Below, one piece after another: positions 42,132-54,932 of a stretch of 64,000 nt of DNA; the stretch's first letter is position 1, and each line of letters starts with the position of its first letter. Below the pieces are notes generated by a model. It was not told where the DNA came from. It saw nothing but the letters and a program-made list of their open reading frames with translations, and ran no database searches. Made by a program: the position numbers and the translations under genes. Source of the stretch: Candidatus Lucifugimonas marina (GTDB lineage: Bacteria; Chloroflexota; Dehalococcoidia; Lucifugimonadales; Lucifugimonadaceae); NCBI GenBank assembly GCA_029593915.1, contig CP046147.1, forward strand, positions 1,488,001-1,552,000, given 5' to 3'.

Positions 42132-43175
42132 CTAGTCGAGCTGACGCAACCGTGGGTCGAGTCGGTCTCGCAGCCAGTCACCGAAGAAGTTTAGGGCCAT
42201 CACAACCAAGAAGATTGCGAATCCAGGCCAGAACGAAATCCACCAAGCTTCTTCAACGAACTGACGTCCGTCAGCAACACTCTTACCCCAAGCTGGAATC
42301 GGGTCAGGGATTCCGGCACCGAGGAAAGACAGAGTTGATTCAGTAAGAATCAGCTGTCCTACACGAAGTGAAGCAACAACAAGAATCGTGCTGAACGTAC
42401 CAGGCAGAATGTGCTTGAGCACGATTCGTAGTGGTGACGCACCAGCGATCTTTGCTGCCTGTACGTACTCCTGACCACGAATGGTCAAAACGTCCGCACG
42501 TACCTGTCGCACGAATGGCGTCCATGCCACCAGTGCGATCAGCAAGATCACGACCCCTTCGGCCGCACCTCCTGACGTTAGGAATAGCTGGGCTATCACC
42601 AATGCGATAAGAATGAACGGCAACGCCAAGAAGATGTCGACGAATCGCATTAGGAATTCGTCAGTCCAACCTCCGAAGTATCCTGCCGCAATACCCATCA
42701 GAGAACCAATGATGATTCCTGAGGTCAGAGCATACGCAGTCACCTTGAGTGAGATCCTAGCACCGTGGACAACACGGGAAAGCACGTCACGTCCCAAGTT
42801 ATCAGCACCAAGAATGTACTTCGAACGTGGAAACGAGTTCTTCTTCGCCCGGTTGTACGCCGAACGCTCTTTAGTGATCGTCAAATCGTAATCAGCCGAA
42901 TCAGGCGTTACGTTGAACTCTGGTCGAGCTGCCCCCCAAGTTGGCGGGTAGTTGCGGAAGCTAAGTGACTGTTCGATCGGGTCTGCTGGCGAAACGATCG
43001 GAGCGAAAACTCCTGCGATAAGCAACACCGTCATGATGAACAACGGTAGTAGCGGCCACCTTCGGAACAGATAGAACGCCTGTGAACCGAATGAACGCTT
43101 CACGACTGTTCGAAGTTCCGCACCGATTGCGGGAGTCGCTGTATTTGTTGATTGTGTATCAGCTTGCTGAGACAT
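42132..43175 (-). CDS. Dipeptide/oligopeptide ABC permease (DppC-like)
   Basis: A 347-residue inner-membrane permease with an N-terminal cytoplasmic stretch and first helix (PLFIMTVLLIAGVFAPIVSP), a periplasmic region, then five helices. The class marks are ILGADNLGRDVLSRVVHGARISL and the EAA loop QEYVQAAKIAGASPLRIVLKHILP. Its partner DppB-like gene lies 45 bases upstream. No ATPase gene (DppD/F) follows, because a terminator closes the operon, so these must come from elsewhere. Substrates of this class range from peptides to sugars and opines. Confidence 0.94.
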   Translation of the reverse strand: MSQQADTQSTNTATPAIGAELRTVVKRSFGSQAFYLFRRWPLLPLFIMTVLLIAGVFAPIVSPADPIEQSLSFRNYPPTWGAARPEFNVTPDSADYDLTITKERSAYNRAKKNSFPRSKYILGADNLGRDVLSRVVHGARISLKVTAYALTSGIIIGSLMGIAAGYFGGWTDEFLMRFVDIFLALPFILIALVIAQLFLTSGGAAEGVVILLIALVAWTPFVRQVRADVLTIRGQEYVQAAKIAGASPLRIVLKHILPGTFSTILVVASLRVGQLILTESTLSFLGAGIPDPIPAWGKSVADGRQFVEEAWWISFWPGFAIFLVVMALNFFGDWLRDRLDPRLRQLD

Positions 43176-43220
43176 TTTCCTGCGCTAACTATTTACTGGT
43201 CTGGAGAAATTCGAGTTTGA

Positions 43221-44156
43221 TTAGTCGTATCGAATTCGTGGGTCAATGTAGGCATACAGCAAGTCGGTAATGAAGGTCATTCCCACGAACAGAATCGTGA
43301 AGAAGAACACCACACCCTGAAGAACAGGGAAGTCATTTGCGTTCACTGCATCAATCGCCATCTGCCCCATTCCAGGCCAGGCGAAAATCGTTTCGACAAG
43401 AACCGAACCTGTCAGGAAGAAGGTCAGTCCAAGAGTCATACCCGTAAGTGGCTGGATTAGAGCGTTCTTGAACGCGTGCTTCCAGATAACCATGTTGTTT
43501 CCAACACCCTTCGCACGGGCGAGACGAACATACTCAGAATCGAGCACCTCCAGCATGGCAGTTCGAGTAATTCGCATATAGAAAGCGAACCCTCCAGACG
43601 CCAGGGTGATCGTAGGCAGGACCAGGTGTTTAACATCCCAAATACTGTCGCCTTTTAGCCCCGCAGGGAACACCTGCCATTTCACTGCAAACAGCATGAT
43701 CAGAACAAGACCAAGCCAGAACTGTGGCACCGCCTGACCTAGCAAGGCGAAGAATCTACCTACGTAGTCCCAAATGGAACCTCGTTTCACTGCCGAGAGT
43801 ATTCCAAGTGGAATTCCGACTACGAAAGAGAGGATGAACGCGGTCGCACCGAGGTGCAAAGTCGACGGTAGTCGTTGAGTGACCACACGAGATACCGGCT
43901 TACGGTCTCGGATAGTTTCACCCATGTCACCCTTCAGGGTGCGTCCGAGCCAAAGAGCGTACTGCACAGGAACTGCGCGGTCTAACGCCAGTCGTTTCCG
44001 TAATGCCGCTTCGCTTTCAGGAGTCAGACCATAGCCTGACGTTGCGTATAGCAAGAGAGGGTCGCCAGCAGCTCGGGAGAGCAAGAAGACAGCCAGTGTG
44101 GCAACCACAATACTGACTAACGAGAAGATGAATCTACGAATAATAAAGCGCCGCAT
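43221..44156 (-). CDS. Dipeptide/oligopeptide ABC permease (DppB-like)
   Basis: A 311-residue membrane permease of the DppB/OppB type: N-terminal helix (RRFIFSLVSIVVATLAVFLL), RAAGDPLLLY, LDRAVPVQYALWLGRTLKGDMGE, and the EAA loop SEYVRLARAKGVGNNMVIWKH. It ends in a helix and YIDPRIRYD, as usual. It sits between the substrate-binding protein and the second permease on the minus strand. A 225-base gap to the binding-protein gene holds a strong hairpin at 44302-44332. Confidence 0.95.
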   Translation of the reverse strand: MRRFIIRRFIFSLVSIVVATLAVFLLSRAAGDPLLLYATSGYGLTPESEAALRKRLALDRAVPVQYALWLGRTLKGDMGETIRDRKPVSRVVTQRLPSTLHLGATAFILSFVVGIPLGILSAVKRGSIWDYVGRFFALLGQAVPQFWLGLVLIMLFAVKWQVFPAGLKGDSIWDVKHLVLPTITLASGGFAFYMRITRTAMLEVLDSEYVRLARAKGVGNNMVIWKHAFKNALIQPLTGMTLGLTFFLTGSVLVETIFAWPGMGQMAIDAVNANDFPVLQGVVFFFTILFVGMTFITDLLYAYIDPRIRYD

Positions 44157-44301
44157 TGATTCCCTTGAATCTTAATAATTAATTGCTAGTGACTAAAGCC
44201 CAGCGAGGTTACCACAGATGGAGCATCTTACGACTTGTTTCGTTCTCGAAAGAAGGGCGTAAATGCGCCATTTAATTGGCATGCTGTTCTGACTTAAATG
44301 C

Positions 44302-44332
44302 GAAGGGGCTCATCATAACGATGAGCCCCTTC
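44302..44332 (-). promoter_or_regulatory. Intercistronic hairpin between binding protein and permeases
   Basis: GAAGGGGCTCATC (44302-44314), loop ATAAC, GATGAGCCCCTTC (44320-44332): thirteen perfect pairs. It lies 50 bases after the binding-protein stop and 146 before the DppB-like start on the transcribed strand, with no T-run after it. This is the usual site for a 3'-stabilising or partly terminating element that keeps the binding protein more abundant than the permeases. Confidence 0.85.
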
Positions 44333-44381
44333 ACCAATTGCACGTCAACTGCTTTCACAGATGACTCAATCAGGAGTCGAA

Positions 44382-46298
44382 CTACTTGAGTTCGAGGTTC
44401 CAGGTTGAGTTCAGTGATGCAGCGGCAGCTCGGTCCATGTCGAAGCTAGCTACTTTGTTGTTGTTGAAGTAGAAAGCGTCTGGAACGGCTACAACACCTG
44501 GCTGCAGGTTCTGGCTGTAAACGTACTCGAGGTATTCGTTTGCGGCCTGAGTTGCAGCTGCGGAGTCTGGAGCTTCAGCCATGCGTGTGTAGAGGTCCAG
44601 AATTACTGGAGACTCGAAACCACATGAGAAACCACCACGTGTGAGAGTTGTCTGGACAAGTCCCTTAGGGAAGTGCCATGGGTTCGACTCTCGACCCTTG
44701 TCACAAGATGTGATCCATGGGTGAGTGTTTGAACGACCGACAACAGTTGGTCGGAAGGTCTGGTAGGAGAACTTCAGTGAGAAGGTGGTGAGTCCGATGT
44801 CGGCCCAGAAGCCAGCAACAGCGTCAGCAACTTCACCAGTGACAGATGCACCACCACCGAGTTCAGGACCTGCGTAGATCGAGATCTCAAAGGCGTGTTC
44901 GCCAAGAGGTCCGTCCTTAGGAGCTGAACCGTGCTGGTAGTCGTTGTCCTGCGCCGTGATCAAGGCAACAGCCTCGTCAGGGTCGTAAGGGTACTCGTAC
45001 TTGGAGTCCCAGTTCGGGTGGCTAGCTGAGAAGTACTCAACGTGAACCGGTGAACCGAGTCCTGCAAGGAGAGTGTCGTTTACAAGGTCACGGTCGATAG
45101 CAACAGCGAGAGCTCGGCGAATTGCCACAGCCTGCTCGAGGTCGTCTGCACCGTGTGATCCATCTGGCTTACCAATCCAAGGCAGGTCGTGAACGAATGT
45201 TGCCTTAGTTGGGAGAGGCTCACCAGTCTTGGCGTAAGTGTCTTCCCAGAGGTTACCGGAGAAGAACACACCAAGCTGAACAGCCGCACCAGCAGATGCC
45301 TGTGTGAACTCTGTCAAGTCGAACTTGGCAGCGTCTTTTGGCTCGAGGTGAGCAATGTCAACCTGACCAGTTCGGAGAAGCGAAGATCGAGTAGTTGCTT
45401 CAGTTACCTGAACCAGCTGGATTCGGTCTGTCTTAGGCTCGAGTTCTGGGAGCCAGTGTGTACCTTCGCGGTTAACTATGGTGTACGACTCGTCTCGAAG
45501 CCACTCTTCAACTTGGAATGGTCCAGTTGCAACGATGTGGTCTCGGACCCAGTCCTTGCCCATGTCGTCGAAAGCTTTCTTAGAAAGAACCGAGAAAGCC
45601 TGACCTGACTGGTTGACGAAGTCGTCTTTCCAAGTCGAGTCGTAAGCGGCGAAGTCAAACTCAATGGTTTCGTCGTCAACAGCAACCCACTCGCCCCAGA
45701 GACCGGCGAAGTCACCAGCCTGTCCGTGAATGGACTCAGGAGTTGTAGCGCTGTTTGCGTTGTTCATTGAGAAAGCAACGTCGTGTGCGGTCAAGTTACC
45801 GAAGTCGTTGCCGTCAACAACCTGGAACGGAACACCCTGCTGAATCTTCACAGTAGCGCTGGACAAGTCCGACGAAATTGTGAAATCAGTAGCGAGCCAG
45901 TTCAAAGTGCTGTCGTCAGCGGCTCGGCGGAACAGAGTCTCAGCAATACCGACGTTCTTGAGACCGTCAGGTGACTGAGCTTCGTTCAGACCGTTCTCTG
46001 CACCCATAGAGTTACCGTTTACGGCAATCACTGCGGTATCTGCAGGTGTTGATGTGTCTGGTGCAGTGATCAGGTCTTCAGGCTCGTCGGCAGGCGCCGC
46101 TGGCACTGGAGTGGCAGTAGCAACAACGATAACGTCGTCACCCTTTTCCGTTACAACAACGGTTTCAACAACCGTGTCGCCCTTAACAACTACAGTCTCA
46201 ACGACAGTGACGGTTTCCCCACCACAGGCGATGACGGCTGTCATTGCTGCACCAATCAGAAGCCCCATTACGAGCTTCATCTTGTCTAGCTTAAACAA
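44382..46298 (-). CDS. ABC substrate-binding lipoprotein (SBP family 5)
   Basis: The extracytoplasmic receptor of the importer, 638 residues. TTG 46298 is taken as start because AGGAGG ends six bases before it; the later ATG at 46280 has no site. The signal is MFKLDKMKLVMGLLIG with lipobox VIA-Cys25. A low-complexity Thr/Val/Glu linker follows (about 28-70), then the two-lobe family-5 domain: ALAVAIDRDLVNDTLLAG, HDVAFSMNNA, GTHWLPELEPKTDRIQ. Family members bind peptides, opines or sugars. It is the first gene of the operon. Confidence 0.93.
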   Translation of the reverse strand: MFKLDKMKLVMGLLIGAAMTAVIACGGETVTVVETVVVKGDTVVETVVVTEKGDDVIVVATATPVPAAPADEPEDLITAPDTSTPADTAVIAVNGNSMGAENGLNEAQSPDGLKNVGIAETLFRRAADDSTLNWLATDFTISSDLSSATVKIQQGVPFQVVDGNDFGNLTAHDVAFSMNNANSATTPESIHGQAGDFAGLWGEWVAVDDETIEFDFAAYDSTWKDDFVNQSGQAFSVLSKKAFDDMGKDWVRDHIVATGPFQVEEWLRDESYTIVNREGTHWLPELEPKTDRIQLVQVTEATTRSSLLRTGQVDIAHLEPKDAAKFDLTEFTQASAGAAVQLGVFFSGNLWEDTYAKTGEPLPTKATFVHDLPWIGKPDGSHGADDLEQAVAIRRALAVAIDRDLVNDTLLAGLGSPVHVEYFSASHPNWDSKYEYPYDPDEAVALITAQDNDYQHGSAPKDGPLGEHAFEISIYAGPELGGGASVTGEVADAVAGFWADIGLTTFSLKFSYQTFRPTVVGRSNTHPWITSCDKGRESNPWHFPKGLVQTTLTRGGFSCGFESPVILDLYTRMAEAPDSAAATQAANEYLEYVYSQNLQPGVVAVPDAFYFNNNKVASFDMDRAAAASLNSTWNLELK

Positions 46299-46453
46299 AA
46301 ATTTCCTCCTCAGACGTGCAATGACCCACGATCGGGTCTTTGTCAGGTATCCAGATTGAAATCCAGACACCACGTCATGTCGCAGTCTTGGGGCAATCGT
46401 TGACATCAGCCCGCTAGCTCGCATGCACGCAAACCGCGCACTAAAAACAACAA

Positions 46454-46565: not shown

Positions 46566-47561
46566 TTAGCTAACCCTGTGGCGCACACGGTCCTGGAGAA
46601 AATCCACAACGTTGTCGACAACCATATTCAGCGAGACGGTCAACGCTTCGGCTGTATTCGACGCTATATGGGGAGTAAGGATCACATTTGGCAAATGAGC
46701 CAAAGTTGAACTCCTGTCGAGCGGTTCGCTACTGAAAACGTCGAGAGCTGCGCCTGCTATGGTCTCGTTTGCAAGGGCCTCTGCAAGTGCACGATTGTTG
46801 ACGAGCTGTCCACGAGCAGTATTGATGAACAATGCAGTGGGCTTCATTCGAGAAAATTCAGCGGGTCCGAACATCGCTCGAGTCTGTGGTGTCAATCTGG
46901 CATGGATCGAAATCGCATCGGAATTTGCCAGCAAATCGGGGAAACTAACTTCCGTCCGATTTGAAGAATCGTCGTTCTCAGCAGTGTCAGTTACTTCTGT
47001 TAACGAACTGGTTAGAACTCGCATACCAATACCTTCGGCAATTCGGGCCAAACGAATACCCACAGCTCCAGTTCCTACGATTCCCAGTGTTTTCCCCGCT
47101 AGCTGGGTAAGTTGCCCACCCGGCCACTCGCCCTCTCTCACTCTGAGATCAAGCTGAGGAATCTTTCGTGCAAGAGACATTAGTAACGCGAGAGCGTGCT
47201 CTGCCACGGCGACAGTAGCCGCATTAGGAGTGTTGGTCACCACAACACCTAATCGACGTGCGGATTCGAGTGCCACGTGATCTGCAGCTGTGCCCCAAAT
47301 CGCTATGTGCTTCAAATCCGGCGTTACCGATTCAAGAATAGCGTTCGTTAGTCTCGTGGTCGTCCTGGCTACTATTAACGTGTGGCAACCCGAGATTCGT
47401 TCAATTAGTTCGTTTGGACCGCTCGGACGTTCAGTAAACGAGTGAACTTCCAAATTTGGCATCCGGTTGAGTCGCGCCATAGCCGCCGAGTCTGCGAATA
47501 CCGGTGGGTCATCGTCTGGGACAACGATCTTTATTTTGTTTTCGGATGCGGTCGATTCCAA
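46566..47561 (-). CDS. D-2-hydroxyacid dehydrogenase family protein
   Basis: A 331-residue NAD-dependent oxidoreductase of the D-isomer-specific family. NAD loop GIVGTGAVGIRLARI, the catalytic Arg in SIHARLTPQTR, the Glu region FINTARGQLVNNRALAEAL and the His in LTPHIASNTAEA are all present. Substrates may be glycerate, phosphoglycerate-like or other 2-hydroxyacids; serine-pathway SerA cannot be claimed because no ACT domain is present. It is transcribed away from the corrinoid cluster, across 172 bases without a clear element. Confidence 0.9.
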   Translation of the reverse strand: MESTASENKIKIVVPDDDPPVFADSAAMARLNRMPNLEVHSFTERPSGPNELIERISGCHTLIVARTTTRLTNAILESVTPDLKHIAIWGTAADHVALESARRLGVVVTNTPNAATVAVAEHALALLMSLARKIPQLDLRVREGEWPGGQLTQLAGKTLGIVGTGAVGIRLARIAEGIGMRVLTSSLTEVTDTAENDDSSNRTEVSFPDLLANSDAISIHARLTPQTRAMFGPAEFSRMKPTALFINTARGQLVNNRALAEALANETIAGAALDVFSSEPLDRSSTLAHLPNVILTPHIASNTAEALTVSLNMVVDNVVDFLQDRVRHRVS

Positions 47562-47733: not shown

Positions 47734-48072
47734 ATGTCGCGTGTGCGTGTCATGTATTGGAAAGAAATCCCTGTACAAGTACAAGCTGAGGATGATGAAG
47801 GTAGAGTGTCGAGGCAACTCGAAGACCGCTTCCAAAAGGCTGCCGATGCGGTAGCAATGAAAGATGGAAGTGAAGGTACCGATGAATATCTCGATGCATG
47901 GGAGTTCGGTCCCTACGTCGAATTACCTTCTTCAGCTGCCGATGCTGCAGAGGAACTGGCACTCAAATTACAAAGAATGCCCACCAACTTCGTTCAGCGC
48001 ATCATTAAGATGAACGAAGATGGCACAAGAAACCCGGCCCCGGGGGCTATCGATCACTGGGTTGAGTCTTGA
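47734..48072 (+). CDS. PF13769-like ('virulence factor') small protein
   Basis: A 112-residue protein from ATG 47734 (upstream frame start at 47698 has no support). The opening MSRVRVMYWKEIPVQVQAED and the LEDRFQKAADAVAM region match the PF13769 'virulence factor' family, whose name misleads: members are often found beside corrinoid or one-carbon methyltransferase genes. The C-terminus ends in NPAPGAIDHWVES. No metal motif is visible. Its position as first gene of a corrinoid methyltransfer block fits that pattern. Function unknown. Confidence 0.75.
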   Translation: MSRVRVMYWKEIPVQVQAEDDEGRVSRQLEDRFQKAADAVAMKDGSEGTDEYLDAWEFGPYVELPSSAADAAEELALKLQRMPTNFVQRIIKMNEDGTRNPAPGAIDHWVES

Positions 48073-48138
48073 ATCAGTCGAACTGAATCTAAATCAACGA
48101 ACGAAACTTACGTTTTCTGAAATAACTGGAGAAATCAT

Positions 48139-49035
48139 TTGGTAGCTGCTGACGGCAAACCCGGAATCCTTGATCGGCTCGCGGCAGGCGAGACTCTGAT
48201 CTTTGACGGAGCGACTGGGACCTATCTTCAGAACAACGGGTTGGAACCGGGAGCAAGCCCGGAACTGATGAACGCAACTCATCCCGAAGTGGTTCAGGGA
48301 ATGTCGAAACAATACTTCGACGCCGGTTCAGACATAGTTTTGACCAACTCTTTCGGCGGAAACAAGTTCATGCTGGAACGCTACGGCGCCGGCGAACGGC
48401 TTACTGAGCTCAACAAACTCGCCGCCGAACATGCCAGATCAGTTGCTCCTGAAGGCAAGTTCGTCGCCGGTTCGATTGGCCCGACAGGTGAATTCATCGA
48501 ACCGCTCGGCAACGTCACCGAAGACGAGCTTTACGACAACTTCTCTGCGATGGCTAAGGCATTCGAAGCCGGTGGCGCTGATGCAGTGATGATCGAAACT
48601 CAGCTGGCTATCGATGAAGCAGCAATCGCCGTACGAGCTGCTAAAGAAACAACCAACTTGGTAGTTATGTCGACCATGGTGTTCGATCAAGGTCCTCGCG
48701 GTTATTTCACGATGATGGGTGTAACACCCGAACAGGCTGTGGAAGGCTTACAAGAGGCCGGTGCCGATATCGTAGGATCGAACTGCGGACTGGGCATTGA
48801 AAAAATGGTGGAAATCGCTACTCGAATGAGAGCAGTTACCGACAAATATCTCGTCATCCAGTCGAACGCCGGCATGCCGGTAATTCAAAAAGGCGAGACC
48901 TGTTATCTCGACACGCCTGAGTACATGGCAGAACATTACGGAAAACTAGCTGATCTGCCAATTAATGTGCTCGGCGGATGCTGCGGAACCACTGCCGATC
49001 ACATCCGAGCACTCATACAATCTGTACGAATCTAA
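48139..49035 (+). CDS. Homocysteine S-methyltransferase family protein
   Basis: A 298-residue TIM barrel related to betaine-homocysteine methyltransferase and to the N-terminal domain of MetH, which binds homocysteine by zinc thiolate. Zinc ligands are Cys216 (IVGSNCGLG) and Cys281-Cys282 (VLGGCCGTT). Other marks are FDGATGTYLQ, TNSFGGNKFMLERYG, AGSIGPTGEF and MIETQLAIDEA. It starts at TTG 48139 after GGAG. It stands alone, lacking the pterin, B12 and activation domains of full MetH; these tasks could be served by the neighbouring proteins. Confidence 0.9.
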   Translation: MVAADGKPGILDRLAAGETLIFDGATGTYLQNNGLEPGASPELMNATHPEVVQGMSKQYFDAGSDIVLTNSFGGNKFMLERYGAGERLTELNKLAAEHARSVAPEGKFVAGSIGPTGEFIEPLGNVTEDELYDNFSAMAKAFEAGGADAVMIETQLAIDEAAIAVRAAKETTNLVVMSTMVFDQGPRGYFTMMGVTPEQAVEGLQEAGADIVGSNCGLGIEKMVEIATRMRAVTDKYLVIQSNAGMPVIQKGETCYLDTPEYMAEHYGKLADLPINVLGGCCGTTADHIRALIQSVRI

Positions 49036-49073
49036 ATCGAAATCAGTCAAAACGTTTATTGGAGAGTAATTCG

Positions 49074-49745
49074 ATGCCATCGCTGGCACAGCCACCACGA
49101 GTCGCCGAGAAGATAAAAAGGCTTGGTAACTGTATTGAGCTTGTATCTATCGACCCGCATTTTCACGATGTGAGCGTAGGACTATTCATCAAAGATGGCG
49201 TAATGACCATCTCGACCTACAGCACAATCGATGGTGTGGAAGCAAGAATCGAACAGATTCGTGACCGCTGCGTGAAGTTAGGCGATGTCGAAGCTGTCGA
49301 GGGAGCAACCGATCAGCTTCGACTGGTTTCTGACTTATACCTTGATCGCGCTCTTCGATTTATGTTCATTGCTGCAGTCGAGAAAGACCCGGCGCAGGAA
49401 CTTCCTTCCGGGCGAATCACTGCTCCGGACACCAAAACGAAGCTAACGCTGGTTGTCGAAGGCGCCGAAGAAGACGGTCAATACGTCTACACCGTTTCTA
49501 CAGAAGGCGAAGCTGAACGGGCTGTAATGCGTGTGAGGGCCACTGTAGGCGGATTTATTCGTTACTCGGGTTGTGTCCGAGTAGATAAGAACAAATTCTC
49601 GTTCCCCGACGGCAAACAGTACGACAATTTCGCCCGTCTCATTCTTCCTCTGGCCCGAAACGTCAGCGCTGTTGAAGCACAGCTTGAAGCCGACGAAATG
49701 GCTGGTCAGATGAACACTCAAACCCTCGGATTCGCTCAGAGCTAG
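49074..49745 (+). CDS. Unrecognised protein inside the corrinoid cluster
   Basis: A 223-residue protein from ATG 49074, preceded by GGAG (the open frame begins earlier but inside the previous gene). I know no family for it. It has no signal peptide, membrane helix or Cys cluster. Visible are IDPHFHDVSVGLFIKDG near residue 27, a helical central part (RIEQIRDRCVKLGDVEAVE), and a beta-rich second half with RATVGGFIRYSGCVRV and FPDGKQYDNFARLILPLARN. Its place between the homocysteine methyltransferase and the UroD-type gene, with gaps of 38 and 33 bases, says it belongs to the same operon. Confidence 0.75.
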   Translation: MPSLAQPPRVAEKIKRLGNCIELVSIDPHFHDVSVGLFIKDGVMTISTYSTIDGVEARIEQIRDRCVKLGDVEAVEGATDQLRLVSDLYLDRALRFMFIAAVEKDPAQELPSGRITAPDTKTKLTLVVEGAEEDGQYVYTVSTEGEAERAVMRVRATVGGFIRYSGCVRVDKNKFSFPDGKQYDNFARLILPLARNVSAVEAQLEADEMAGQMNTQTLGFAQS

Positions 49746-49778
49746 TCGATTTTCAGAAAAGGTCCTCAGGACAATCAA

Positions 49779-50822
49779 ATGGCACCCGTAATCGAAAAAA
49801 TGACATCCCGTGAACGGACAATGGCTGCGTTGGCTGGTGAACCAGTGGACCGACCGCCCGTTTGCACACCGACCAACGTCGCTACCGTTGAACTGATGGA
49901 TCTGGTCGATGCACCGTTTCCCGAGGCGAACCGCGATGCTGAAATGAACGCCCGCCTGGCGGCAACGGCGTACACGGAACTCGGTTTCGACACTATTGCA
50001 CCGTATTTCTCAATCATTCAGGAATCATCCGCGCTTGGTTGCGACATGCAGTGGGAGCAGAAAGACAACTGGCCAACCGTCCGGATGTCGAATCCAATCT
50101 GGAAAAGTTCTTCCGATGTGAAGATCCCATCTGATTTCCTTGAGCACAAAGACACAAGGGCAATCACCGATTCGATCCGAATCCTGAAACAAGAATTTGG
50201 CGATGAAGTTGCGATTGTCGGCAAGACAATGGGACCGTGGACGCTCGCCTACCACGTGTTTGGCGTCGAGCCTTTCTTGCTGGGAACTGTCGACGACCCT
50301 GCCGAAACTATGAAGTCGCTAGAGGCTCTCAAAGCGATCACAATTCTGTACGGACAGGCACAGATCGATGCTGGAGCCGATGTACTGACTATTCCTGATC
50401 ACGCCACTGGTGACCTCGTTAGTGGTGAGTACTACCGACGTTTCCTTATGGAAATGCATCAGGAAATCGAAGAAGAACTAGATGTTCCACTGATGCTCCA
50501 CATATGTGGAGCAACAGTCGACAGAATGCCGTACATCGCTCAAACCGGTATGGCTGCATTTCACTTCGACTCCAAGAACGATCCGGTCGAAGCTATGGCA
50601 GCTGTCGATGGCAAGATTCGTCTTGTGGGAAATATCAACAACCCGACAACGCTCTACGCTAGAGGCCCCGAAGAAGTCAGAAGCGAAGTAAACGCAGCCC
50701 TCGATGCTGGTGTTCAGCTAATTGCGCCTGAATGTGCGATCCCTCTCAAAACCAAGTTGGAAAACTTGCTGGAAATCCCGACTGCTATCGAAGATTGGGT
50801 TGCTGAGCGTGGTCAAAACTAA
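49779..50822 (+). CDS. UroD/MtaA-type corrinoid methyltransferase
   Basis: A 347-residue protein of the uroporphyrinogen decarboxylase superfamily, of the zinc methyltransferase branch (MtaA, MtbA, CmuA) and not a heme enzyme. The zinc site is His241-x-Cys243 (LMLHICGAT) plus Cys319 (IAPECAIPL). The N-terminal RERTMAALAGEPVDRPPV is typical. Such proteins move a methyl group between a corrinoid and a thiol such as coenzyme M, or load it from a small methylated donor. The start may be Met1 or Met8. It follows the unknown gene by 33 bases. Confidence 0.9.
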   Translation: MAPVIEKMTSRERTMAALAGEPVDRPPVCTPTNVATVELMDLVDAPFPEANRDAEMNARLAATAYTELGFDTIAPYFSIIQESSALGCDMQWEQKDNWPTVRMSNPIWKSSSDVKIPSDFLEHKDTRAITDSIRILKQEFGDEVAIVGKTMGPWTLAYHVFGVEPFLLGTVDDPAETMKSLEALKAITILYGQAQIDAGADVLTIPDHATGDLVSGEYYRRFLMEMHQEIEEELDVPLMLHICGATVDRMPYIAQTGMAAFHFDSKNDPVEAMAAVDGKIRLVGNINNPTTLYARGPEEVRSEVNAALDAGVQLIAPECAIPLKTKLENLLEIPTAIEDWVAERGQN

Positions 50823-50969
50823 CCAGAACTGACCCGAATATCACCCGTATAGAAATTTGTAATTCATTTTCTTTCGATCCGATGACACAATGAATGATTG
50901 GAGCCGGTTTCACAACAACGTTGGTAAACCACTCCATAGACCCCGAATCCACACATTCCGAGACTTTTA

Positions 50970-51719
50970 ATGCCGATTACGCACGAAGGGCTAGCCCGAG
51001 AATTCGAGTTCGTCACCAACCCTGGTGAACAGAAGCACATATCTGAAGCAATCGATGGCACCGCCCCGATCATGCAGGAGATGGCTTACGAGTTGATCGT
51101 CGGCAATAACGCTGACGTTGATCGCCTTACTCAAGAAGCTTTGACAGAAGGTTTTACTGCCAACCAGGTTCTGGATGATGGCCTTTTGAACGGCATGGCA
51201 ATCGTGGGAGTGAAGTTCCGCGACAACCTAATCTTTGTTCCTGAGGTTCTCGTAGCCGCTCGAGCGATGAAAGCCGGAATGACTCACATTGAACCCATCC
51301 TTTCTGCATCGGGCGCAGAACCTGCTGGAACAGTTGTGATGGGCACCGTAAAGGGTGACCTTCACGACATCGGTAAGAACCTCTGCATCATGATGCTTCG
51401 TGGCGCAGGATTCGTCGTTCATGACATCGGTGTTGACTCTTCACCTGAAGATTTCATCGACGCTGCTGAAGAACACGAAGCAGAAGTTGTCGGTATGTCA
51501 GCGCTACTCACCACGACGATGCCAAACATGGGGCGAACTATCGCAACATTCGAAGACATGGGAATGCGTGACGAAGTCAGGATCATGGTCGGTGGAGCAC
51601 CTGTCACTCAGGACTTCGCCGATGAAATGGGTGCTGATGCCTACGGTGACAATGCCGTCGATGCGGTCGACAAGGCGAAAGATCTCGTCAAACTTCTAGC
51701 TGAACTAAAATCCAGCTAG
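50970..51719 (+). CDS. Corrinoid (B12)-binding methyl carrier protein
   Basis: A 249-residue protein with a helical cap (about 30-115: DVDRLTQEALTEGFTANQVL) and a Rossmann-like B12 domain. The cobalt-ligand motif Asp130-x-His132-x-x-Gly135 is in GTVKGDLHDIGKNL, followed by DIGVDSSPEDF and SALLTTTMPNM. It is the MtaC/MtbC/MetH-like type that carries a methyl between two catalytic partners. No cobalamin riboswitch is seen upstream in the 147-base gap. Confidence 0.95.
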   Translation: MPITHEGLAREFEFVTNPGEQKHISEAIDGTAPIMQEMAYELIVGNNADVDRLTQEALTEGFTANQVLDDGLLNGMAIVGVKFRDNLIFVPEVLVAARAMKAGMTHIEPILSASGAEPAGTVVMGTVKGDLHDIGKNLCIMMLRGAGFVVHDIGVDSSPEDFIDAAEEHEAEVVGMSALLTTTMPNMGRTIATFEDMGMRDEVRIMVGGAPVTQDFADEMGADAYGDNAVDAVDKAKDLVKLLAELKSS

Positions 51720-51758
51720 CGCCCAAGCGGTAACCAATCTGCGACTGGGGGATGTTCA

Positions 51759-52025
51759 ATGGCTGAGGAACAGGCCCGTAACGAAAATCGCGAAGTAGAT
51801 TCGGAAAAAGCACGCGTCAGCATGGATCGTCTTTTTGATATCTACCGTGATATCGCTGAGACCGCTGACGAAGTTATGCAGACTCGATGTCCGTATAAAG
51901 ACGCTTCAAGCCGATGCACAGCAAAGTTTGGCTGTCGCAACCAGTTCTTTACTAGCGATCCCACTGCCCTACCCGCCTGCGCGGGCAGCGACCAGATCGA
52001 CTACAGAGACGCTTGGGACACCTAA
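51759..52025 (+). CDS. Small Cys-motif protein of the corrinoid cluster
   Basis: An 88-residue protein I do not recognise. Four Cys occur in the C-terminal half: CPYKDASSRCTAKFGCRNQ and a last Cys in PACAGSD. The spacing C-x8-C-x5-C-x16-C suits a small zinc or iron-sulfur site. The N-terminus is highly charged (EEQARNENREVDSEKARVS). It sits 39 bases after the corrinoid protein and 89 before the activator, so an electron-transfer or assembly role for the corrinoid is a guess. The start is ATG 51759 after a GGGG-rich site (gactggggg). Confidence 0.7.
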   Translation: MAEEQARNENREVDSEKARVSMDRLFDIYRDIAETADEVMQTRCPYKDASSRCTAKFGCRNQFFTSDPTALPACAGSDQIDYRDAWDT

Positions 52026-52114
52026 CCTGGGCAAGATATTCCAGTCACGACAGTTGCCCTAGTCATTAACGACGTTCTTTTCTGGGGAAGTCCAGATTTA
52101 AAGTTCGTATCTAG

Positions 52115-53776
52115 TTGCAGTGTGTTGCCCGAGACCTTCAGATTTTGAGTCCAGTTTATCTAAATTCCAAAAAACTTGAAGCAAATCAAAACGATTCGTT
52201 ATTTGATTTCGCCGACTCTCTCTCGATTCGTGTGCCAACTTCCTGTGGACGAACTGGCGAGTGCCACGAATGTATCGTGGAAGTCCGAAAAGGTTCCGAG
52301 GCGCTCACCGCACCCACCGATGAGGAAAAATTCCTCCGTGGTGACTATCGACTCGCTTGTCAGGCGTGCGTTGCCGATCCTGAAGCCGATATCGATTTCG
52401 CGGTTCTGCGTCGCCAACCTCGAATTCTCACGACCGGAACGAAACGGCAAACAGAACTCAACCCTGCATACGTTCGAGTCGACGATGAAGTGGTCTATAA
52501 CGGCCCCGAAGGTCCTACCGTTGTAGACACATATCGCGGTGCTATCTACGGAATCGCAGCCGATTTGGGAACGACGACGGTTGTTCTTAATCTTGTGAAC
52601 CTTGAATCTGGCGACATTGAATACACGGCATCGTTCGAGAATCCACAACGTTTCGGTGGCAGCGACATCATGAATCGAATCAGCTACGACGGTGGCAGTG
52701 ATTCGGGTGAGCTGCGAGCTGTGATGGTTTCATCGATCAATTTCGAAATTGGTGAAATGGTTCGAGCGCTAAAAATCCGTCGTCGTCAGATCTTCGAAAT
52801 CGTCGCCGTAGGCAATACCACGATGCGCGATCTATTCTTCGGAATCGACGTTCAAAGCATCGGAACACGACCGTATAAATCTCTTATAGAAGATGAGTTC
52901 CGAGAGTCAGAACGGGCTACTACAGCACTAACAAAAAACGCCGCAGAACTTGAACTTCGAATTCACCCTAAGGCGACCGTATACGGCGGACCGCTAATTG
53001 CGTCCCACCTCGGTGCTGACACTGCCGCTGATCTACTCGCACTCGGAATAGAAGATCAAAAAGAACCGATCATTCTCGTCGATGTTGGCACGAACACCGA
53101 AGTCGTCATCGGAAACAGTGAACGATTGCTCGCTGCATCCTGCCCTGCGGGTCCAGCTTTCGAAGGTGGCGAGGTCACCTACGGAATGCCTGGATACGAC
53201 GGCGCTGTCGAAAAAGTGACAATCGATTCCGACGGCACCGCCAACTCGAAAGTTATCGGTGAAGCCGACCCAATTGGAATCTGTGGGTCAGGTCTTATCG
53301 ATCTTCTAGCCGAGTTACGTCGAACAGACTTGATGGACGAACTTGGCAAATTTGCCGACGGCTCAAGCGAATATGAATTTGCCGCCACCAACGAACTGAC
53401 CTTATCGCGAGCCGATATTTCCGCTCTCGCACAAGCCAAGGCAGCCAACTACTGCGGTCAGGCGATTGTGCTCAGAGAGTACGGGCTACCTCTCGAACAA
53501 TTCGAGAAGCTGTATCTTGCTGGTGGTTTCGCCAACTACGTTGATGAGACAAACGCTATCGATATTGGCTTCATCGCAAATATGCCAATAGAAAAGGTTG
53601 AGAAAGTCGGGAATGCGTCGCTCGAAGGCGCCGTGATCATGCTGCTTTCGACGATCAAACGCGACGAAATCGAAAAGTTGACCTCGACTATCGAGCACGT
53701 TGAACTCGAAACAGCCCCCGACTTCTTCGACTTTTTTGTTGAAGGCTGTTTGTTCAAGCCGATGGCAGCCGAGTAA
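52115..53776 (+). CDS. RACE: reductive activator of corrinoid enzymes
   Basis: A 553-residue protein with an N-terminal plant-type [2Fe-2S] ferredoxin-like domain (Cys44-x5-Cys50-x2-Cys53 in TSCGRTGECHEC, then Cys82 in RLACQACV) and a C-terminal ASKHA ATPase: GIAADLGTTTVVLNLVNL, IAVGNTTMRDLFFGI-like IVAVGNTTMRDL, PIILVDVGTNTEVVIG, PAGPAFEGGEVTYG and KLYLAGGFANYVD. RACE proteins use ATP to reduce inactive Co(II) corrinoid to Co(I). Its presence shows the neighbouring corrinoid is not repaired by an AdoMet domain. Starts at TTG 52115 or a later TTG. Confidence 0.92.
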   Translation: MQCVARDLQILSPVYLNSKKLEANQNDSLFDFADSLSIRVPTSCGRTGECHECIVEVRKGSEALTAPTDEEKFLRGDYRLACQACVADPEADIDFAVLRRQPRILTTGTKRQTELNPAYVRVDDEVVYNGPEGPTVVDTYRGAIYGIAADLGTTTVVLNLVNLESGDIEYTASFENPQRFGGSDIMNRISYDGGSDSGELRAVMVSSINFEIGEMVRALKIRRRQIFEIVAVGNTTMRDLFFGIDVQSIGTRPYKSLIEDEFRESERATTALTKNAAELELRIHPKATVYGGPLIASHLGADTAADLLALGIEDQKEPIILVDVGTNTEVVIGNSERLLAASCPAGPAFEGGEVTYGMPGYDGAVEKVTIDSDGTANSKVIGEADPIGICGSGLIDLLAELRRTDLMDELGKFADGSSEYEFAATNELTLSRADISALAQAKAANYCGQAIVLREYGLPLEQFEKLYLAGGFANYVDETNAIDIGFIANMPIEKVEKVGNASLEGAVIMLLSTIKRDEIEKLTSTIEHVELETAPDFFDFFVEGCLFKPMAAE

Positions 53777-53945: not shown

Positions 53946-54932
53946 ATGACTACCAAAGTATTAATTACCGACTACGTATGGCCTTCGACCGATCCTGAAC
54001 GTGAAGTTCTTGAAGCTGCGGGCATCGAGCTAGTAATAGCTCCTGACACCTCTGAAGCGACTCTCGCCGATCTTGCAAAAGATGTCGACGCGATCATGTT
54101 CTGTTTCGCGCAAGTCACGGGAAAAGTTCTCGAAGCCGCGACCAATTGCAAAATCGCAGCTCGCTACGGAATCGGCGTCGACAATGTCGATATCGCCAAG
54201 GCAACCGAACTCGGAATAGTCGTTACTAACGTTCCTGATTACTGCATGGACGAAGTTACCGACCACGCGTTGGGAATGATTCTTGCCTTGAATCGTCGAT
54301 TGGTCCCGCACACCAACACGGTAGTCAAAGGTGGCTGGAACGACGTGGCTCTCGATCAGCCTATGCACCGAACTCGGGGAGCAACTCTTGGTATCGTGGG
54401 CTACGGACGAATTGGTCGGTCACTCGCAGCCAAAGCTGTTGGATTCGGCATGAATATTCTTGCTTACGATCCAATGATTGAAGAAGGCTCCGAAGTCGAT
54501 GGTGCAAAAGCCGTTTCTCTCGATGACGTACTCGCCAACTCAGATTTCGTATCTCTCCACGTGCCGTTAATTCCCGCTACGCAAAACATGATCAGTGCGC
54601 CAGAATTGGCCAAGATGAAACCCGGCTCGATAATCGTGAACTGTGCACGCGGTGGTCTCATCGATGAGGATGCGCTCGCTGACTCTCTAGCTTCAGGGCA
54701 CACGGCAGGTGCAGGACTCGACGTAGTTGAACCGACTCCACCAGACCCTTCAAGCCCTTTGCTACAGCAAGAGAACGTGATCATCACGCCTCACACGGCA
54801 TTCTTCTCACAAGCATCGACTCTCGAACTTGAACGTCGAACTGCTCAGGAAGTTGTACGTGTACTGAACGGCGAGAAACCAGAGAATTTGATCAACCCAG
54901 ACGTGCTTGGTAGCGCACGATCAGGAATCTAA
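53946..54932 (+). CDS. C-terminal-binding-like D-2-hydroxyacid dehydrogenase
   Basis: A 328-residue NAD-dependent hydroxyacid dehydrogenase similar to phosphoglycerate dehydrogenase and CtBP-like enzymes. Marks are RYGIGVDNVDIAKATELGI, the loop GIVGYGRIGRSLAAKA, the catalytic Arg, Glu and His in IVNCARGGLIDEDAL and ITPHTAFFSQ. There is no ACT domain. It lies 169 bases after the RACE gene without an obvious element in between, so it may or may not belong to that operon. The stop falls just before the convergent tgpA remnant. Confidence 0.88.
   Translation: MTTKVLITDYVWPSTDPEREVLEAAGIELVIAPDTSEATLADLAKDVDAIMFCFAQVTGKVLEAATNCKIAARYGIGVDNVDIAKATELGIVVTNVPDYCMDEVTDHALGMILALNRRLVPHTNTVVKGGWNDVALDQPMHRTRGATLGIVGYGRIGRSLAAKAVGFGMNILAYDPMIEEGSEVDGAKAVSLDDVLANSDFVSLHVPLIPATQNMISAPELAKMKPGSIIVNCARGGLIDEDALADSLASGHTAGAGLDVVEPTPPDPSSPLLQQENVIITPHTAFFSQASTLELERRTAQEVVRVLNGEKPENLINPDVLGSARSGI

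What the first reader, a model, noticed from the sequence alone, without database searches (positions are those of the whole stretch)
47734..53776. Corrinoid methyl-transfer operon with two unnamed proteins
Seven plus-strand genes in a row combine a homocysteine S-methyltransferase-like protein, a UroD/MtaA-type zinc methyltransferase, a B12 carrier and a RACE activator, with a PF13769-like protein and two unrecognised proteins (223 and 88 residues). The set has the parts of a split methionine synthase, with the pterin domain replaced by a UroD-type protein and the AdoMet repair domain replaced by RACE. Alternatively it is a demethylation system for an unknown methylated substrate, with methyl passed to homocysteine. 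No methylamine or methanol MT1 of the common type is present.
Basis: partly seen in the sequence, partly recalled or inferred. Interest (0 to 1): 0.75.

Follow-up and report, generated by a model that had tools for sequence, protein, structure and literature searches.

The report
SAR202 split B12 methionine-synthase operon
A marine SAR202-type bacterium appears to make methionine with a vitamin-B12 enzyme split into separate proteins, joined by a second methyl-transfer enzyme and two undescribed proteins that travel with it in nearly all sampled relatives that have the system.

Summary
The seven genes are real and in order. The genome is SAR202-like Chloroflexota, inferred from named relatives. 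It has no MetH AdoMet domain and no MetE, so RACE-for-AdoMet-domain is supported. "UroD replaces the pterin domain" is not: a methyl-THF:corrinoid-type methyltransferase and an MTHFR lie elsewhere in the genome, and in 26 of 84 related loci that gene adjoins the operon genes (20 after UroD, 6 before PF13769).

In 197 genomes of the order, UroD (99), 88-aa (98), 223-aa (97) and RACE (98) proteins occur in almost the same genomes. MetH domain or strong MetE: 22 of 99 operon+ genomes, 85 of 98 others.

Best reading: a split, RACE-activated cobalamin methionine synthase of the P. inhibens/Ruegeria kind, with an MtaA-type zinc methyltransferase as a second entry or exit for methyl groups, and two new obligate partner families. 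The UroD substrate is unknown. The 223-aa protein has a confident model without a good Foldseek match in the PDB; the 88-aa protein has four invariant cysteines. New variant of a known kind.

The parts
47734..48072 (+). PF13769 ('virulence factor') protein, 112 aa; predicted accessory of the corrinoid/RACE system
   Evidence: Pfam 42.9 bits; beside corrinoid, DUF1638, MTHFR, MeTr and RACE genes in Azoarcus and Sinorhizobium; fused to RACE in Terrarubrum
48139..49035 (+). homocysteine S-methyltransferase module (MtgE-like), 298 aa
   Evidence: PF02574 212.6 bits; C216, C281, C282 invariant in 96 sequences; MetH fragment 1q7m E 1.4e-49
49074..49745 (+). U223, undescribed protein family of 223 aa
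   Evidence: no convincing Pfam match in 33 members; in 97 of 197 genomes of the order; AlphaFold2 pLDDT 87.9; best Foldseek PDB match E 0.21
49779..50822 (+). MtaA/CmuA-type (UroD superfamily) zinc methyltransferase, 347 aa
   Evidence: TIGR01463 and PRK06252 above cut-off; 30.7% identical to MtaA 4ay7; H241, C243, C319 invariant in 95 sequences
50970..51719 (+). corrinoid (B12) carrier protein, 249 aa
   Evidence: PF02607 + PF02310; H132 of the DLHDIG motif invariant in 88 sequences
51759..52025 (+). U88, undescribed four-cysteine protein family of 88 aa
   Evidence: C44, C53, C59, C74 invariant in 47 sequences; in 98 of 197 genomes of the order; model pLDDT 69
52115..53776 (+). RACE corrinoid reductive activase with N-terminal 2Fe-2S domain (start uncertain)
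   Evidence: Fer2, Raco_middle, RACo_C_ter; C44, C50, C53, C82 invariant in 73 sequences
53946..54932 (+). D-2-hydroxyacid dehydrogenase, frequent downstream neighbour, link unproven
   Evidence: PF02826/PF00389; match in 46 of 84 U223 loci

Best explanation
The operon encodes a split, RACE-activated, cobalamin-dependent methionine synthase with an extra methyl-transfer arm. Inferred working: MTHFR and the methyl-THF:corrinoid methyltransferase (encoded elsewhere in this genome, next to the operon genes in many relatives) load methyl onto the corrinoid protein; the PF02574 protein passes it to zinc-bound homocysteine, giving methionine; RACE re-reduces oxidised cobalamin with ATP in place of the AdoMet domain, probably helped by the PF13769 protein. 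The MtaA-type zinc protein is a second corrinoid methyltransferase, most likely for an S- (or Se-)methyl compound, so that methyl groups can be salvaged into methionine or moved to another thiol. U223 and U88 are obligate partners: U88 perhaps a metal or Fe-S protein near RACE or the carrier, U223 perhaps a factor that docks by its conserved C-terminal tail. Shown: gene content, conservation, co-occurrence, complementarity with MetH/MetE, conserved metal-ligand residues. Inferred: every catalytic step, the UroD substrate, and the roles of U223, U88 and PF13769.
For: No PF02965 or PF01717 in the genome; MeTr and MTHFR present. Co-occurrence in 197 genomes: UroD/U88 98 both, 1 UroD only, 0 U88 only; UroD/U223 96 both, 3 and 1; UroD/RACE 97 both, 2 and 1 (lists). 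MetH domain or strong MetE in 22 of 99 operon+ and 85 of 98 operon- genomes; by family sets 6 of 22 against 21 of 23 (half-or-more rule, p 1.3e-5) or 8 of 22 against 21 of 23 (any-member rule, p 1.5e-4). Gene order conserved in 84 loci, MeTr adjoining in 26. One locus (L203) has MetF and an ArsR/SAM-methyltransferase protein between RACE and the dehydrogenase. The corrinoid, MTHFR, MeTr and RACE parts plus PF13769 lie together in proteobacterial loci. The split synthase is supported by mutant data in P. inhibens and Ruegeria (PMC5764234, PMC12478193). Zinc ligands conserved, also in tandem UroD copies.
Against: 20 of 99 operon+ genomes also carry the MetH domain, 17 of them in open frames of 1,170 aa or more, so methionine synthesis alone does not explain retention. 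PF02965 does not detect a MetH without that domain. If every PF01717 match counts as a MetE, the contrast shrinks to 54 of 99 against 89 of 98. The genome has a second homocysteine methyltransferase, fused to MTHFR. MeTr was not surveyed across the order. No substrate, metal or activity was measured. DUF1638, needed in P. inhibens, is not among the seven genes and is not detectably related to U223. Sampled genomes are related by descent, and MAG incompleteness can mimic absence.
Confidence: 0.65

Rival explanations
1. Dedicated demethylation system: the MtaA-type protein is MT1 for a methylated thioether (or similar), and methyl is passed to homocysteine or THF; methionine supply is a by-product.
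For: MtaA/CmuA family membership with an intact zinc site; tandem UroD copies in 9 loci (6 distinct contigs), all with the tested residues; UroD kept beside the MetH domain in 20 of 99 genomes; UroD relatives proposed for methyl-S/Se metabolism (PMC10418091).
Against: Complementarity with MetH/MetE; the window UroD residue is shared at 76% of positions on average across 95 sequences, more like a housekeeping step than a changing catabolic one; the inserts seen between operon genes vary and give no shared catabolic gene.
Confidence: 0.2
2. One reading: a methionine synthase in which the UroD-type protein takes the place of the pterin domain, i.e. folate-independent or with UroD loading methyl from folate.
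For: The window operon has UroD and no PF00809 gene.
Against: MeTr with MTHFR elsewhere in the genome; MeTr and UroD together in 26 of 84 loci and in locus L024 from another class of the phylum.
Confidence: 0.06
3. UroD is a maintenance or alternative homocysteine/thiol methyltransferase of the synthase (for instance clearing or priming the carrier), with no outside substrate.
For: UroD is found without RACE in only 2 of 99 genomes and without U88 in 1 of 99, and with the carrier it is the most conserved protein of the six compared.
Against: I know of no precedent (recalled); tandem UroD copies suggest substrate choice.
Confidence: 0.2

Closest known systems
Split cobalamin methionine synthase of Phaeobacter inhibens / MtgCDE(+MtgB) of Ruegeria pomeroyi (PMC5764234, PMC12478193)
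   Same: separate homocysteine, corrinoid and pterin proteins; RamA/RACE activation; no PF02965; PF13769 lies beside the corrinoid, MTHFR, MeTr and RACE genes in proteobacterial loci
   Different: adds an MtaA-type protein, U223 and U88; no DUF1638 gene and no MtgB in the operon
Type 1 mlp gene clusters (Kountz and Balskus, PMC10418091)
   Same: MtaA-like protein with His-Cys-Cys site, corrinoid protein and RACE together; over 25% identity to MtaA
   Different: one UroD gene here, not Mlp2 plus Mlp3; PF02574, PF13769, U223, U88 present; UroD only 23-26% identical to the three UroD-type proteins of an Acetoanaerobium cluster
Methanogen MtaA / MtbA
   Same: family and zinc ligands
   Different: the aligned MtaA residues SVEEK read HFDSK here; below the MtaA and MtbA equivalog cut-offs; context is methionine
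Core methionine synthases MesA-D (PMC7857596)
   Same: methyl-corrinoid to homocysteine logic
   Different: no PF01717 protein in this genome; homocysteine module is PF02574

Membership tests
Split RACE-activated cobalamin methionine synthase | separate PF02574 homocysteine module | tested here: met
   C216, C281, C282 invariant
Split RACE-activated cobalamin methionine synthase | separate corrinoid protein (PF02607 + PF02310) | tested here: met
Split RACE-activated cobalamin methionine synthase | separate pterin-binding methyltransferase in the genome | tested here: met
   (elsewhere in the genome; adjoining the operon genes in 26 of 84 loci)
Split RACE-activated cobalamin methionine synthase | RACE instead of the AdoMet reactivation domain | tested here: met
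Split RACE-activated cobalamin methionine synthase | DUF1638 protein (required in P. inhibens) | tested here: inconclusive
   none of the seven operon proteins matches it; genome not searched for PF07796; U223 not alike
Split RACE-activated cobalamin methionine synthase | methionine auxotrophy on loss | not testable with these tools
   needs genetics
MtaA/CmuA methyltransferase family | TIGR01463 above curated cut-off | tested here: met
   256 vs 235.4 bits
MtaA/CmuA methyltransferase family | His-Cys-Cys zinc ligands | tested here: met
   H241, C243, C319
Methylcobamide:CoM methyltransferase (MtaA equivalog) | NF040654 cut-off | tested here: not met
   237.9 vs 400 bits
Type 1 mlp gene cluster | at least Mlp2 and Mlp3 in one cluster with corrinoid protein and RACE | tested here: not met
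   one UroD gene in the operon
Classical MetH | PF02965 reactivation domain | tested here: not met
MetE / core MetE | PF01717 | tested here: not met
Betaine-homocysteine methyltransferase (PRK07534) | curated cut-off | tested here: not met
   244.3 vs 338 bits
MtgBCD betaine demethylase | MtgB (PF06253) | not tested
   none in the operon; genome-wide search not run

The most novel reading that the evidence does not exclude
In SAR202-type bacteria, methionine synthesis and methyl-sulfur (or methyl-selenium) salvage share one corrinoid hub: an MtaA-type enzyme is a built-in arm of the methionine synthase, and two unknown families, U223 (no good Foldseek match in the PDB, docking by its tail) and U88 (four-cysteine metal protein), are needed for the carrier to work with RACE.
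Probability: 0.35. Interest if true: 0.8.

Novelty: new variant of a known kind. Interest (0 to 1): 0.6.

Why it matters
SAR202 bacteria are abundant in the deep ocean (recalled), yet 77 of 99 operon genomes sampled show neither the MetH reactivation domain nor a strong MetE match. This operon would fill that gap, gives two undescribed protein families a firm functional setting, indicates that PF13769 'virulence factor' proteins belong to B12 methyl-transfer systems, and makes a methyl-sulfur link to methionine directly testable.

Tried and rejected
U223 as a DUF1638 relative: no similarity by HMM or hhalign. U88 as the MTHFR C-terminal cysteine domain: none. Pfam for U223 and U88: only weak, scattered hits. 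PDB sequence search for both: nothing convincing. Foldseek: U223 best E 0.21, U88 best E 8.6. UroD as HemE: rejected, 69.5 vs 302.95 bits. Inserts between operon genes as substrate clues: genes that differ between genomes, apart from the ArsR/MetF pair. Riboswitches in the window: only a tRNA reached an Rfam gathering score. A UroD/U223 pairwise comparison was uninformative. First family-level test left out operon- members of two families (f1, f117); it is replaced. My first extraction of U88 proteins misread the strand for some loci; the U88 results used come.

Full report
What is there. Seven + strand genes at 47734-53776 are as described: PF13769; PF02574 homocysteine methyltransferase; an unmatched 223-aa protein (U223); an MtaA/CmuA-type UroD protein; a two-domain B12 carrier; an unmatched 88-aa protein (U88); and RACE with a 2Fe-2S domain. 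A 2-hydroxyacid dehydrogenase follows, and another lies on the minus strand upstream. The window lies in a single-contig 3.09 Mb genome (93.34% complete). Its nearest named relatives by U223 are MAGs titled Chloroflexi, Dehalococcoidia or SAR202, hence my label SAR202-like.

Is there another methionine synthase? None of the classical kinds: PF02965 absent (7 of 14 control genomes rang) and PF01717 absent (10 of 14 rang). The pterin module is not missing. PF00809 has two matches: one that I take for dihydropteroate synthase (a FolK-like frame follows, read by eye), and one at C1:312309-313346 that resembles methyl-THF:corrinoid methyltransferases (below their cut-off, 185 vs 259 bits) and lies next to an MTHFR with the cysteine-rich C-terminal domain. 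A second MTHFR is fused to a homocysteine methyltransferase. So the homocysteine, corrinoid and pterin modules and RACE are all in the genome, and UroD is extra.

Co-occurrence. In 197 genomes of the order, U223 is found in 97, U88 in 98, UroD in 99 (E <= 1e-60), RACE in 98 (E <= 1e-10); by genus 42, 42, 42 and 43 of 92. Overlaps (lists typed from those calls): UroD with U88 98, UroD alone 1, U88 alone 0; UroD with U223 96, UroD alone 3, U223 alone 1 (a weak match, E 3e-4); UroD with RACE 97, UroD alone 2, RACE alone 1 (a 35% identical paralogue). Across 400 genomes of the phylum, U223 is in 6 and U88 in 6, five the same; the sixth U223 match is weak. The sixth U88 genome (G129, another class) has UroD, PF02574, carrier, U88, RACE, MTHFR and MeTr in one run; it had no U223 match genome-wide, and no PF13769 match in the 8.1 kb stretch, which ends at the contig end.

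Complementarity. PF02965 is in 76 of 197 genomes and PF01717 in 117. PF01717 includes many weak paralogues, so I kept only the 33 genomes with E <= 1e-60 as likely MetE or core MetE; the other 84 were dropped from the main count. MetH domain: 20 of 99 operon+ (one weak, E 4e-9) against 56 of 98 operon-. Strong MetE: 2 of 99 against 31 of 98. Either: 22 of 99 against 85 of 98 (Fisher p 7e-21). With every PF01717 match counted: 54 of 99 against 89 of 98 (p 9e-9). By family sets (190 of 197 genomes labelled, the 7 others operon-): 6 of 22 against 21 of 23 when half or more of a set have one (p 1.3e-5), 8 of 22 against 21 of 23 when any member does (p 1.5e-4; families with both kinds are counted on both sides). 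Here operon+ means UroD+. This agrees with the operon replacing MetH and MetE. The 20 operon+ genomes with the MetH domain, 17 in frames of 1,170 aa or more, speak for a further role or redundancy. PF02965 would miss a MetH that lacks this domain.

Gene order. I took stretches around 84 of the 97 U223 genomes, leaving out the window and 12 others. Of 84 loci, contig ends counting as misses, UroD is in 82, PF02574 81, carrier 74, PF13769 73, U88 73, RACE 60, downstream-type dehydrogenase 46, MeTr 26, MTHFR 8 (tblastn cut-off 1e-6). MeTr follows UroD in 20 loci and precedes PF13769 in 6. In two of the 84, parts are inverted (L080, L131). In some genomes RACE lies far from the rest, for instance G404. 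In L203 an ArsR/SAM-methyltransferase protein and a MetF (TIGR00676 above cut-off) lie between RACE and the dehydrogenase; the regulator was found there in seven loci on four distinct contigs. These point to methionine metabolism.

PF13769. In Azoarcus and Sinorhizobium it lies with corrinoid, DUF1638, MTHFR, MeTr and RACE genes, with betaine transport genes near by in Azoarcus; in Terrarubrum it is fused to RACE, beside corrinoid and DUF1638 genes. The plasmid search found 8 records with PF13769-like matches, of which I read three. Its 'virulence factor' name is misleading; it most likely serves the corrinoid cycle (inference).

UroD. 30.7% identical to MtaA over 332 aligned residues. H241, C243, C319 are invariant in 95 sequences; 129 of 347 positions show the window residue in at least 97% (truncated, stop- or X-containing and duplicate rows were dropped first). 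That these are MtaA's zinc ligands is recalled; PMC10418091 describes the His-Cys-Cys site (passage). MtaA's SVEEK reads HFDSK here. Nine loci (six distinct contigs) have two copies, both with all tested residues. It fits the 'MtaA-like protein' definition of PMC10418091 (over 25% identity to a characterised enzyme) but is only 23-26% identical to the three UroD-type proteins of an Acetoanaerobium cluster that also has a carrier and RACE.

U223. Model pLDDT 87.9, pTM 0.78, alpha/beta; best Foldseek PDB hit E 0.21. Its most conserved ten residues are the C-terminal GQMNTQTLGF: mean 0.92 in 82 rows that were not chosen by this motif. The value of 0.93 is partly circular, since the genome-contig scan behind it searched for this very tail, and that scan would miss relatives without it. 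Model confidence falls to 59 there: a sign of docking to a partner (inference). C20, E22 and D27 are invariant in 52 sequences. U88: helix 15-40, then C44, C53, C59, C74, all invariant in 47 sequences; the model is weak; metal binding is inferred.

Spread. Full operons occur in two Entotheonella-labelled chromosomes and two SAR324-labelled contigs; the Entotheonella UroD, carrier and U223 are 73-85% identical to Chloroflexi copies: transfer or mislabelled bins.

Literature. PMC5764234: passages. PMC12478193: outline with abstract, Results part 1 of 2, section 7 and Discussion. PMC10418091: abstract, passages, Results part 1 of 2. PMC7857596: passages. I saw no report of this SAR202 operon in searches; these list only part of the hits (12 of 101, none of the 12 mentioning SAR202) and cover only open-licence papers.

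Conclusion. A new variant of the split, RACE-activated cobalamin methionine synthase, with an MtaA-type arm and two new obligate families. The synthase role is well supported by comparison but untested; the role of UroD is open between an S-methyl entry and an exit or maintenance step.

Noticed in passing
L213:7986-10268: Terrarubrum plasmid protein labelled 'virulence factor' is PF13769 fused to a RACE activase, so PF13769 is likely a B12-cycle protein.
   Followed up: yes
L186, L192, L175, L182: The whole operon appears in contigs labelled Entotheonella (two chromosomes) and SAR324 cluster: gene transfer or mislabelling.
   Followed up: partly
L203:14788-16643: ArsR-type regulator fused to a SAM methyltransferase, followed by MetF, between RACE and the 2-hydroxyacid dehydrogenase; the regulator occurs there in seven loci on four distinct contigs, MetF was checked in L203 only.
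   Followed up: partly
L006:7873-9786: Homocysteine methyltransferase-MTHFR fusion in the window's own genome, a possible second methionine enzyme.
   Followed up: partly
window 46566-47561 and 53946-54932: Two 2-hydroxyacid dehydrogenases flank the operon; a match to the downstream one is in 46 of 84 loci, reason unknown.
   Followed up: partly
gap between U223 and UroD in relatives (e.g. L083, L086, L114): This gap is the one most often interrupted: 32 of 85 gaps of 450-6000 bp (some contigs fetched twice), holding different genes in different genomes.
   Followed up: partly
genomes of genus g289 (e.g. G534, G518): The MetH reactivation domain lies in open frames of only about 310-345 aa in 11 genomes of that list, which looks like another way of splitting MetH.
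   Followed up: no
window 42132-46424, minus strand: Peptide-type ABC transporter genes (SBP_bac_5 binding protein, BPD_transp_1 permease) upstream of the operon; the binding protein is also near the operon in some relatives.
   Followed up: no
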